Below, in pieces: positions 38,456 to 40,979 of a DNA stretch of 64,000 nt. Made by a program: the position numbers and the translations under genes. Source of the stretch: Halostagnicola kamekurae (GTDB lineage: Archaea; Halobacteriota; Halobacteria; Halobacteriales; Natrialbaceae); assembly GCF_900116205.1 (NCBI RefSeq), contig NZ_FOZS01000002.1, forward strand, positions 186,001 to 250,000, in the 5' to 3' direction. A model generated the notes under the pieces. It saw only the letters and a list, made by a program, of their open reading frames with translations, was not told where the DNA came from and did not search any database. The stretch's first letter is position 1; the number at the start of each line of letters is the position of its first letter.

Positions 38456-39592
38456 ATGTCACAAACGCCAGTCATCGCGGCCGCGTATCGAACCCCACAA
38501 GGGAAAGAAGACGGCGTATACGCCGACCTGCGAAGCGAGGATCTCTCCATCCCGCTGATCAACGAAATCCTGGCCGAGAGCGGCCTCTCGAGCGAGGACA
38601 TCGACGATCTGATGTGGGGCTGTGCCCAGCAGCGCGGCGAGCAGGACAACAACCTCGCGCGGATCATCGCCCTGCTCTCGGATCTGGGCGAAGGGGTACC
38701 GGCGACGACGATCAACCGCTGGTGTGCCTCCTCCATGCAGGCGGTCATCTCCGCGTCGGACGCCATCGCGGCGGGCAACCGCGACGCGATCATCGCCGGC
38801 GGCGTCGAGTCGATGACCCGCGTGCCGATGGGCGAGAGCACGGCGGAGGTCCACCCGCGGCTGGCCGCCGAGTACAACGTCGGCGAACTCCAGATGGGGA
38901 TGACGGCAGAGAAGGTCGCCGAGGAGTTCGACGTCACTCGAGAGGAGCAAGACGAGTACGCGGCCCGAAGCCAGCAGCGGGCCGTCGAGGCGACCGAGGA
39001 AGGTCGCTTCGAGGACGAGATCGTCCCGATCGAAACGGAAGACGGAACGATCACCGAGGACGAGGGCCTCCGTCCGGGAACGACCGCCGAGAAGCTCGCC
39101 GAACTGCCGACGGTGTTCAAATCCGACGGCAGTGTCACCCCCGGTAACGCCTCGCAGATCTCCGACGGCGCGTCCGCGCTTCTGGTCACGAGCGAGGCCT
39201 TCGCCGAGGAGCACGACCTCGAGATCCTCGCCGAAGTCGGGATGAACAACGTCGCTGGCGTCGATCCGACCATCATGGGAATCGGTCCGGTTCCGGCGAC
39301 GCGCGGCCTGCTCGAGCGAAACGGTCGCGACATCGAGGACTACGATCTGGTCGAACTCAACGAGGCCTTCGCCAGCCAGAGTCTCTACTCTCGAGACGAA
39401 CTCGGGATCGACCCCGAGATCTTCAACGTCAACGGCGGCGCGATCGCGATCGGCCACCCGCTCGGCGCCTCGGGCGCTCGCCTGCCGGTCACCCTGATTC
39501 ACGAACTCCAGAAACGCGGCGGCGGCCTCGGACTGGCGACGTTGTGTGTCGGGTTCGGACAGGGAGCGGCGATCGAGTTCGACGTGAACTAA
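38456..39592 (+). CDS. Acetyl-CoA C-acyltransferase (thiolase)
   Basis: 378 residues. Nucleophilic Cys is in [11 protein letters not shown] (about C87), followed by [13 protein letters not shown]-terminal catalytic residues: His in [16 protein letters not shown] (about 334-349) and Cys in [10 protein letters not shown] (about 365). ELNEAFASQ is the conserved thiolase segment. It cleaves 3-ketoacyl-CoA or condenses acetyl-CoA units. The last 34 bp of the coding sequence plus about 50 bp downstream are duplicated in tandem after the gene. Confidence 0.93.
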
Positions 39593-39767
39593 CGGACCGT
39601 TCGTTCACCTTTTGGTCCAGATTTTCCGAGGCTGTGAGCGAGCGAAGCGAGCGAGTCGGCCGAGAGAAAAGGTGGTCGCGACAGGGAGCGGCGATCGAGT
39701 TCGATGTGAACTAACGGACCGTTCGTTCACCTTTTGGTCCAGATTTTCCGAGGCTGCGAGCGAGCGC
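39559..39767. repeat. Direct repeat of about 86 bp (period 122) duplicating the thiolase 3' end
   Basis: Copy 1 is 39559-39645, covering the last codons and stop of the thiolase gene and the sequence CGGACCGTTCGTTCACC onward. Copy 2 is 39681-39767, nearly identical (GACGTG to GATGTG and CTGTGAG to CTGCGAG). The 35-bp gap between them contains GCGAGCGAAGCGAGCGAGTC-type short repeats. The shared AC-CTTTTGG-TCC segment may be a terminator, so the terminator would also be doubled. Confidence 0.9.
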
Positions 39768-39814: not shown

Positions 39815-40180
39815 ATGGTCAGTCTCCTGCTAGTCGCGCTCATCTCCGCCGCGCTGTGTGCCCACGCCGGGCTCGTGGGAGTGGTCTACTACGACACCGG
39901 GACGGTCGCGCTCGAGCGCCGACGCTGGCTGTTGCTCGTCGGGCTGATTCCGATCTTCGGCTTTTTTATGTACCTCTTCGAGCGAAGCGAACTCGACTAC
40001 GATCCGTCGACGGACCCCTACGCCGGCGGCGGCTACAACGTTCACCCGTCTCGAGCCGACGATTTTCCGTTCTCGAGTTCCGACGGCCAGGAGGGCGCTC
40101 GAGAAAATAGTTCAGATGGTGTGAGACGTGCGGAAAATGAGTACCGAACAGCCACCGACGATGAAGAACGCACCCAGTGA
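39815..40180 (+). CDS. Small membrane protein, haloarchaeal
   Basis: 121 residues from MVSLLLVAL at 39815; the frame is open upstream into the repeat. Two hydrophobic helices (about 2-26 and 39-55), the second ending FFMYLFERSELDYDP, are followed by an acidic, Ser-rich cytoplasmic tail. The IPIFGFFMYLFER segment recalls the small phospholipase-D N-terminal (PLDc_N) membrane hairpin, but this is weak. Function unknown. Confidence 0.6.
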   Translation: MVSLLLVALISAALCAHAGLVGVVYYDTGTVALERRRWLLLVGLIPIFGFFMYLFERSELDYDPSTDPYAGGGYNVHPSRADDFPFSSSDGQEGARENSSDGVRRAENEYRTATDDEERTQ

Positions 40181-40188
40181 TCGGAACC

Positions 40189-40362
40189 TTACTCGTTCTC
40201 GAGCGCGTCGTATATGTCTCGATTCTCGTCTCGATCGGCAGCCGCTACCCGCTTTATTAGCTCTTGACGAATATCCTTCATCGCTTCGTCGAGTTGGGTG
40301 GCGTTCTCGACATTTTCTTCGGTCGCCATGTCTCGATTATCGGTCTGAAAGCGGTTAATCAT
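40189..40362 (-). CDS. 57-residue probable antitoxin, overlapping the Doc toxin gene
   Basis: ATG 40362-40360 to TAA 40191-40189; 57 residues, or 46 if the second methionine (40329) is used. The first ATG overlaps the toxin stop (AATGATTAA). The product is helical and charged: METHIONINE-led MATEENVENATQLDEAMKD (second start) then RQELIKRVAAADRDENRDIY. Size, charge and coupling to a Fic/Doc toxin suggest an antitoxin that inserts a helix into the toxin. The order toxin-then-antitoxin is reversed relative to classical Phd-Doc, and no Phd-like DNA-binding domain is visible. Function inferred. Confidence 0.6.
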   Translation of the reverse strand: MINRFQTDNRDMATEENVENATQLDEAMKDIRQELIKRVAAADRDENRDIYDALENE

Positions 40363-40843
40363 TCGGGTCTGATGGATCGTCAGTCAACAGGTTCAAACCG
40401 TGCTGGAGGAGTTCGTCTCGCCAGACATCGATTTCGGTCGACAGATCTACTTGTTCAGTATGAGATCGGAGGTATTCGATTGTCTGTTCCTCATCGACTG
40501 CCGCTTGGTCCTTCCCGAACCGTTTTAGAATCGTTCTGATTTCGTCGTCATATTCGAACCGATATCCGTTAAGGAGATAGAATACGACCGTTGTGTTAAG
40601 CGCAGTGCGTTTGTTCCCGTCGACGAACGGATGATTGGCAACGAAGAGTCTGAGAAGGTGAAACGATTTCTCGTGAATTGTCTCTGGTGCCGTTCCGAAA
40701 CTCCCGTCGGCGATGTAGCTCAACGCAAACGCGATGTCCCCTCGGTTTCGAATCCCCGAATGAGTATTCGAATACTCAGAGACGATGTCGTCGTGGATCA
40801 TGAGGACATCTTCAACTGACGGATACCAGAACGAGTCAGCCAT
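40355..40843 (-). CDS. Death-on-curing (Doc/Fic family) toxin
   Basis: 162 residues. The Fic core HPFVDGNKRTA (about 71-81) has the catalytic His, the Asp and the Asn-Lys-Arg anion site; Doc proteins often have DANK where this has DGNK. The N-terminal VEDVLMIHDDIVSEY and GGDIAF-like GIRNRGDIAFALSYIA segments also match Doc. Doc phosphorylates EF-Tu, whereas most Fic proteins AMPylate; the mixed motif leaves the reaction open. An overlapping small gene downstream is the likely antitoxin; nothing suitable is found in the 136 bp upstream. Lower GC than neighbouring genes. Confidence 0.85.
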   Translation of the reverse strand: MADSFWYPSVEDVLMIHDDIVSEYSNTHSGIRNRGDIAFALSYIADGSFGTAPETIHEKSFHLLRLFVANHPFVDGNKRTALNTTVVFYLLNGYRFEYDDEIRTILKRFGKDQAAVDEEQTIEYLRSHTEQVDLSTEIDVWRDELLQHGLNLLTDDPSDPND

Positions 40844-40979
40844 TCGTATCAGAGTGTGGGATCGAACCGGCCTAATTCTTGCTGTCGGTCACTAGCGTTC
40901 CATTTCACCGGAGCGACTACCGCTGACAGATCGCCACTACGGGGGAGCTATTATCGCCCTCGAGCACCGACGCACATCC

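What the first reader, a model, noticed from the sequence alone, without database searches (positions are those of the whole stretch)
40189..40843. Doc/Fic toxin with a tiny, overlapping downstream partner (reversed order)
The toxin gene ends inside AATGATTAA, where the ATG of a 57-codon gene begins. The partner has no Phd-like DNA-binding domain, and no antitoxin-sized ORF lies upstream. The toxin core HPFVDGNKRTA mixes Doc and Fic features. A partner this small, placed second, may be a new class of Fic/Doc neutraliser. Seen: genes, overlap and motif. Inferred: antitoxin role.
Basis: partly seen in the sequence, partly recalled or inferred. Interest (0 to 1): 0.72.

Follow-up and report, generated by a model that had tools for sequence, protein, structure and literature searches.

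The report
Haloarchaeal Doc toxin with miniature antitoxin
A salt-loving archaeon carries a cell-poisoning enzyme gene (doc) followed by a tiny 46-codon gene that very likely makes its antidote; unlike bacterial antidotes it is just the toxin-binding tail, with no DNA-binding part, and it sits after the toxin, an arrangement shared by many archaea but apparently not described before in salt-loving ones.

Summary
The toxin and small gene are real, on the minus strand. The toxin (40355-40843) is an ordinary Doc-type Fic protein; HPFVDGNKR is the normal Doc motif. The small gene is coding (dN/dS 0.18), but its conserved start is the second Met (40329): 46 codons, 25 nt after doc. The ATG inside the doc stop occurs in 2 of 29 homologues, so the overlap is incidental. 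In 292 Halobacteria genomes, 147 of 150 Doc rows have such a partner directly downstream. The small gene stays intact where doc is broken or lost; the reverse is almost never seen. Its C-terminus aligns with the Doc-binding tail of bacterial Phd/AbrB antitoxins. AlphaFold packs a relative confidently onto Doc (pTM 0.87). In Sulfolobus, Doc is experimentally neutralised by a small protein holding the same motif. Best reading: a Phd-Doc-like type II module whose antitoxin is only the neutralising tail, without DNA-binding domain, encoded second. Bacterial Docs have it upstream, with such a domain; 12 of 14 scorable Docs from other archaea have it downstream and tiny. A widespread new variant of a known kind; toxicity and rescue are untested here.

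The parts
40355..40843 (-). doc: death-on-curing family (Fic-fold) toxin, 162 aa
   Evidence: TIGR01550 E=1.1e-17, PF02661 E=3.3e-10; PDB sequence relatives 9VZC and 3K33 Doc; fold of a relative matches 3DD7/3K33 Doc
40607..40633 (-). Doc active-site motif HPFVDGNKR
   Evidence: Read from sequence; H71, P72, F73, D75, N77, K78 and R79 invariant in 52 Docs
40189..40329 (-). Predicted antitoxin gene, 46 codons from the conserved start (MATEENVENATQLDEAMKDIRQELIKRVAAADRDENRDIYDALENE)
   Evidence: Conserved start and dN/dS 0.18; profile hits downstream of doc across Halobacteria
40192..40230 (-). Conserved C-terminal tail DENRDIYDALENE, predicted Doc-binding element
   Evidence: Invariant Tyr, Leu and final Glu across subtypes; aligns in C-terminal register with bacterial Doc-antitoxin tails (hhalign P=2.3e-4; matrix ranking)
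40330..40354 (-). 25-nt spacer between doc stop and the conserved small-gene start
   Evidence: Exactly 25 nt in 54 distinct pairs, including relatives from other families
40330..40362 (-).
   Evidence: ATG in only 2 of 29 homologues; dN/dS 0.66
40872..40884 (-). Conserved element upstream of doc (CAGCAAGAATTAG here; often ATAGCAAGGATTAC in relatives), possible promoter
   Evidence: Comparison of 57 upstream regions, about -41 to -29 from the doc ATG; role is inference

Best explanation
This is a type II, Phd-Doc-like toxin-antitoxin module in toxin-first order. Doc, if free, would inactivate a translation factor by the known Doc kinase chemistry (inferred from the family; P1 Doc phosphorylates EF-Tu, and the archaeal target would be the EF-Tu counterpart). 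The 46-aa partner, translated from the gene 25 nt behind doc, binds Doc through its C-terminal helix (..RDENRDIYDALENE), which corresponds to the Doc-binding C-terminal tail of bacterial Phd/AbrB antitoxins, and holds Doc inactive. The partner lacks a recognisable DNA-binding domain, so it is unlikely to autorepress the operon as Phd does; the toxin:antitoxin ratio would instead be set by relative translation and antitoxin turnover. Shown: genes, coding status, co-occurrence, one-sided decay, tail similarity, confident docked model of a type-B relative. Inferred: binding, neutralisation, toxicity, target, lack of autoregulation.
For: Doc family match and Doc fold of a relative. Partner directly downstream in 147 of 150 haloarchaeal Doc rows. 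Partner under purifying selection, dN/dS 0.18; 0.124 where doc is intact and 0.249 where doc is broken or lost. Among 30 type-A loci of one family: 14 have both genes intact, 15 a small gene with broken or absent doc, 1 is cut by a contig end; no intact type-A doc lacks the partner. Doc and partner distances correlate strongly (Mantel r=0.88 over 133 pairs; 0.89 and 0.92 within clusters). The C-tail aligns with tails of bacterial Doc antitoxins (hhalign P=2.3e-4 halo, 8.9e-8 other archaea); all 26 non-redundant halo tails are in the top 2.2% of 4771 ORF C-termini, most in the top 1%. AF2 of a type-B Doc-linker-partner chain: mean pLDDT 89.9, pTM 0.87, linker below 50, partner core and tail 92-97; Doc alone is 132 of 200 residues, so pTM 0.87 implies confident placement of the partner. 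Literature: toxicity of Sulfolobus Doc SiL_0731 is relieved by small SiL_0730 or viral SMV1 gp44, and both pull the toxin down (PMC11065993); gp44 contains the same motif, YKEYLDALAE.
Against: No experiment. The window's own tail alone scores modestly against the bacterial profile (top 1% of ORF ends, but shuffle p=0.25); significance comes from the family. Halo and other-archaeal small profiles barely align with each other (P=0.014). One haloarchaeal Doc (L117) has a frameshifted partner, and L087 has none recognisable. Co-variation partly reflects shared species history.
Confidence: 0.86

Rival explanations
1. The small protein binds Doc but is a regulator, chaperone or activity-modifying subunit rather than a neutralising antitoxin.
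For: Co-occurrence, co-variation and a docked model would also fit a stable subunit. In Enterococcus Phd-Doc the antitoxin acts by dimerising Doc rather than covering the active site (PMC13034048), so mechanism can vary.
Against: The partner persists without an intact doc (15 of 30 type-A loci), odd for a mere subunit; the tail matches known neutralising tails; the Sulfolobus precedent is neutralisation (PMC11065993).
Confidence: 0.07
2. The small gene is an independent conserved gene that happens to neighbour doc.
For: Orphan copies exist (L123-L126, L129, L131, L133, L136-L138 and others).
Against: 147 of 150 Doc rows carry it, with near-fixed spacing; sequence divergence tracks Doc; selection is weaker where doc is lost.
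Confidence: 0.02
3. Doc in this strain is no longer an active toxin and the pair is a decaying remnant kept by chance. (This can hold together with the antitoxin reading of the family.)
For: Doc is broken in 10 of 30 type-A loci of the family, so decay is frequent.
Against: The window's doc is full length with an intact HPFVDGNKR motif and 74-77% identity to most other intact type-A copies.
Confidence: 0.1
4. The partner is a class I Fic antitoxin (VbhA/FicA type) acting through the (S/T)xxxE(G/N) inhibitory helix.
For: Type-A proteins carry (S/T)PLDEV or TQLDEA, loosely like S/TxxxE.
Against: The motif lacks G/N after E, varies (SPLDAV, SELDRV) and is absent from the other subtypes; Docs have NKR, not the GNGR of AMPylating Fic proteins.
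Confidence: 0.03

Closest known systems
phd-doc of phage P1 and chromosomal phd-doc (Salmonella, Enterococcus)
   Same: Doc toxin of the same family and fold; antitoxin tail in the same register as Phd hot spots at positions 56, 59, 60 and 63 (H/N, I, Y, L here); hot spots from PMC9207808, P1 Phd sequence confirmed in PDB 3HRY
   Different: Phd is 73 aa, upstream, with an N-terminal DNA-binding domain; here 46 aa, downstream, no such domain, and ending before Phd hot spots 67 and 70
TasA-TasB and other AbrB-, RHH- or Panacea-Doc modules of bacteria
   Same: Doc plus antitoxin with a conserved C-terminal tail (PMC1626090); Phd-C described as a separable linear neutraliser (PMC10440598)
   Different: Antitoxin carries an extra globular or DNA-binding domain and is mostly upstream; 94 of 108 bacterial/viral Docs scored here have the tail upstream (training set overlaps). 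Phd-C alone did not neutralise in E. coli unless stabilised by SUMO (PMC10440598)
[quoted passage not shown]
   Same: Archaeal Doc neutralised by a small protein; SMV1 gp44 has the motif YKEYLDALAE
   Different: Described as convergent gene pairs; antitoxin longer (83-aa ORF for gp44); full-length homology to the haloarchaeal protein not shown
FicTA / VbhTA (class I Fic)
   Same: Very small antitoxin of a Fic-fold toxin
   Different: Antitoxin upstream, inhibitory S/TxxxE(G/N) motif, AMPylating toxin (own knowledge); motif not conserved here

Membership tests
Doc (death-on-curing) toxin family | Match to DOC_P1 profile above cut-off | tested here: met
   64.4 bits against cut-off 38.65
Doc (death-on-curing) toxin family | Motif HxFx(D/N)(A/G)NKR | tested here: met
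   HPFVDGNKR at 40607-40633; conserved in relatives
Doc (death-on-curing) toxin family | Doc fold | tested here: met
   Type-B relative model vs 3DD7/3K33/3KH2, target-normalised TM 0.80-0.85; the window protein itself was not folded
Doc (death-on-curing) toxin family | Toxic on expression; phosphorylates EF-Tu or its counterpart | not testable with these tools
   Needs expression and a kinase assay
Canonical phd-doc operon | Antitoxin gene upstream of doc | tested here: not met
   No coding ORF upstream; partner downstream in the window and across Halobacteria
Canonical phd-doc operon | Antitoxin with N-terminal DNA-binding domain (Phd/YefM, AbrB, RHH) | tested here: not met
   46 aa; no Pfam/NCBIfam match above cut-off for five subtypes
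Canonical phd-doc operon | C-terminal Doc-binding tail | tested here: met
   Sequence resemblance only: profile alignment P=2.3e-4 and tail ranking, plus docked model of a relative; physical binding not tested
Canonical phd-doc operon | Autoregulation with conditional cooperativity | not testable with these tools
   No operator-like palindrome stood out by eye in upstream regions, not a formal test
Type II toxin-antitoxin module (general) | Two adjacent co-directional genes, toxin plus small protein antitoxin, conserved as a pair | tested here: met
Type II toxin-antitoxin module (general) | Toxicity relieved by the partner protein | not testable with these tools
   Indirect support: one-sided decay; Sulfolobus precedent (PMC11065993)
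Class I Fic antitoxin (VbhA/FicA) | Conserved (S/T)xxxE(G/N) inhibitory motif | tested here: not met
   Only R21, Y40, L43 and E46 (plus Met1) invariant across subtypes

The most novel reading that the evidence does not exclude
Archaea, unlike bacteria, use a reduced Doc module as a rule: a stand-alone neutralising tail (about 38-70 aa) encoded after the toxin, with no DNA-binding autorepressor. It would be a natural 'Phd-C only' antitoxin, functioning in vivo without the stabilising or DNA-binding domain that bacterial Doc antitoxins carry, and regulated by some means other than conditional cooperativity.
Probability: 0.7. Interest if true: 0.62.

Novelty: new variant of a known kind. Interest (0 to 1): 0.55.

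Why it matters
It gives a probable function to many haloarchaeal genes called 'hypothetical protein' or not annotated at all, and supplies the missing partner for archaeal Docs that look solitary when only upstream genes are inspected, as in PMC1626090, which listed two archaeal 'solitary' toxins. A 2009 survey found no archaea-specific TA systems (PMC2701414). If antitoxin function holds, this is a natural minimal antitoxin: the linear neutralising element alone, without the autorepressor domain thought central to type II modules. That makes testable whether a type II module can be stable without autoregulation, and why bacterial Phd-C needs a stabilising partner domain in E. coli (PMC10440598) while archaea do without.

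Tried and rejected
Rejected: the 8-nt overlap as a mechanism (ATG not conserved); the 'mixed Doc/Fic motif'; an upstream antitoxin; class I Fic antitoxin; non-coding small ORF. Literature searches found no description of the haloarchaeal partner, but only open-access papers were searched.

Full report
WHAT IS THERE. Doc matches NCBIfam DOC_P1 at 64.4 bits (cut-off 38.65) and Pfam Fic. Its motif HPFVDGNKR is the ordinary Doc motif HxFx(D/N)(A/G)NKR; H, P, F, D, N, K and R are invariant among 52 Docs aligned here. The nearest solved sequences are Enterococcus Doc 9VZC and P1 Doc 3K33.

THE SMALL GENE IS CODING, BUT STARTS LATER. The small protein is found in 43 of 125 genomes of the window's family. 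Over the 46 codons from there, average dN/dS is 0.18 (0.125 for the last 34), against 0.66 for the 11 codons before the conserved Met and 0.66-0.83 after the stop. So the gene is 40189-40329, 46 aa, 25 nt behind doc, and the overlap in AATGATTAA is accidental. The 25-nt spacing is identical in 54 distinct pairs, while other subtypes have their own near-fixed spacing (33 or 30, or 2 nt).

THE PAIR IS A RULE IN HALOBACTERIA. I searched 292 class-level genomes with the small-protein profile and with TIGR01550. Of the 150 Doc rows listed, 114 have a profile hit directly downstream on the same strand in the listing alone. I fetched the other 36: 33 also have a partner, one of them frameshifted (L117), one weak (L122), one a 149-aa protein with the same tail that overlaps the doc end by 4 nt (L091). 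The three without are L121 (a Doc fragment), the first of the two doc pieces in L119 (doc split by an insertion of about 1.5 kb, the second piece followed by an intact small gene), and L087, a distant Doc. The only small gene listed upstream of a Doc is a second copy beside a normal pair in one genome. Several subtypes exist (46-aa type A as in the window, 56-aa type B, 47-aa type C, 45-aa type D, about 70-aa type E and others) sharing Arg21, Tyr40, Leu43 and the final Glu. Doc and partner divergence correlate strongly (Mantel r=0.88 over 133 pairs; 0.92 and 0.89 within the two large clusters). Public annotation calls the partner 'hypothetical protein' or leaves it out.

ONE-SIDED DECAY. Among the 30 type-A loci returned: doc and partner are both intact in 14; in 10 doc is frameshifted, truncated or fused while the small gene is open; in 5 doc is gone; in 1 the contig ends. 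No intact type-A doc lacks a partner. In the class survey many further small genes follow a broken doc or stand alone. Selection on the small gene is weaker where doc is broken or lost (0.249 against 0.124). This is the asymmetry expected if losing the small gene first is harmful. The lesions were not placed on a tree, so some may be shared by descent.

WHAT THE PARTNER LOOKS LIKE. In bacteria and phages, Docs fetched by sequence have an upstream gene, often overlapping by 4 nt, with an AbrB-, Phd- or RHH-like N-terminus (my reading of the sequences) and a conserved C-terminal tail such as RYRNTLRALAK or ARNAAIYEELAK. Profile-profile comparison aligns the haloarchaeal small proteins with these tails at the C-terminus (P=2.3e-4), and the tiny partners of other archaeal Docs with them more strongly (P=8.9e-8). 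With a position matrix built only from 69 bacterial tails, all 26 non-redundant halo tails fall in the top 2.2% of 4771 ORF ends, most of them in the top 1%, the window's at about 1%. The register places H/N, I, Y and L of the halo tail on Phd positions 56, 59, 60 and 63; in Salmonella Phd these positions are binding hot spots (PMC9207808). Two further hot spots (67, 70) have no counterpart because the small protein ends first. Caveats: the window tail alone is not significant in a shuffle test (p=0.25), nor is P1 Phd, and the halo and other-archaeal profiles barely align to each other (P=0.014).

GENE ORDER BY DOMAIN. Using the same matrix, 94 of 108 bacterial/viral Docs have the tail upstream and 1 (spurious by eye) downstream; the upstream count is partly circular because those ORFs trained the matrix. 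Of 20 archaeal Docs outside Halobacteria, none used in training, 12 have it downstream, 2 upstream, 6 neither. So toxin-first order with a tail-only antitoxin appears typical of the archaea sampled here.

STRUCTURE. In type B the two genes share a frame, so translation through the stops gives Doc-linker-partner as one chain. With 52 rows AlphaFold2 gave mean pLDDT 89.9 and pTM 0.87; the linker is disordered (residues 135-149 below 50) and the partner is three helices, at 92-97 over its last 40 residues including the tail. Doc makes up only 132 of 200 residues, so this pTM requires confident placement of the partner relative to Doc (my inference). The Doc part matches P1 Doc structures (3DD7, 3K33, 3KH2; target TM 0.80-0.85). 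A 7-row model was poor.

MECHANISM AND PRECEDENT. The best explanation is a type II module in which the 46-aa protein binds Doc with its C-terminal helix and neutralises it. In Sulfolobus islandicus, Doc SiL_0731 lowers transformation by 3-4 orders of magnitude; the small partner SiL_0730 or viral SMV1 gp44 relieves this as proteins and pulls Doc down (PMC11065993). gp44, taken here as the 44th CDS of HG322870, contains YKEYLDALAE, matching the same motif (9.4 bits, shuffle p=0.004). A separable 'Phd-C' neutraliser is known from PanA-Doc, where Phd-C alone failed in E. coli but worked with a SUMO tag (PMC10440598); here nature appears to use such an element alone. Without a DNA-binding domain, Phd-type autoregulation is unlikely (inference).

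NOVELTY. Doc and its neutralising tail are known. New, as far as the open literature searched shows, is a stand-alone tail-only antitoxin encoded downstream as the standard partner of haloarchaeal (and many other archaeal) Docs. I rate it a new variant of a known kind, interest 0.55.

Noticed in passing
window 39558-39644 and 39680-39766: An 87-nt direct duplication (98% identical, spacing 122) of the 3' end of the thiolase-like gene and its downstream sequence.
   Followed up: partly
G000:C2:664378-664518 (L123), same genome, outside the window: A second small-family gene of type C with no Doc nearby and a reading frame running on past the usual end: an orphan antitoxin or possible anti-addiction gene.
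   Followed up: partly
L002 and L028: Independent deletions fuse a doc remnant in frame to the small gene, leaving the antitoxin part intact.
   Followed up: no
L119 852-2981: doc is split by an insertion of about 1.5 kb while the downstream small gene stays open.
   Followed up: no
L156 and L314 (non-halophilic archaea): Exceptions to archaeal order: the same C-terminal tail on a gene upstream of doc (92 aa in L156).
   Followed up: no
L155, L158, L160, L163, L164: Archaeal Docs with a HAF(R/N)NGNKRT motif, mostly longer, and no recognisable partner on either side; their antitoxin is unknown.
   Followed up: no
window 39815-40180 (+): A 121-aa putative membrane protein with a sub-threshold PLDc_N match ends 8 nt from the convergent small gene.
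   Followed up: no
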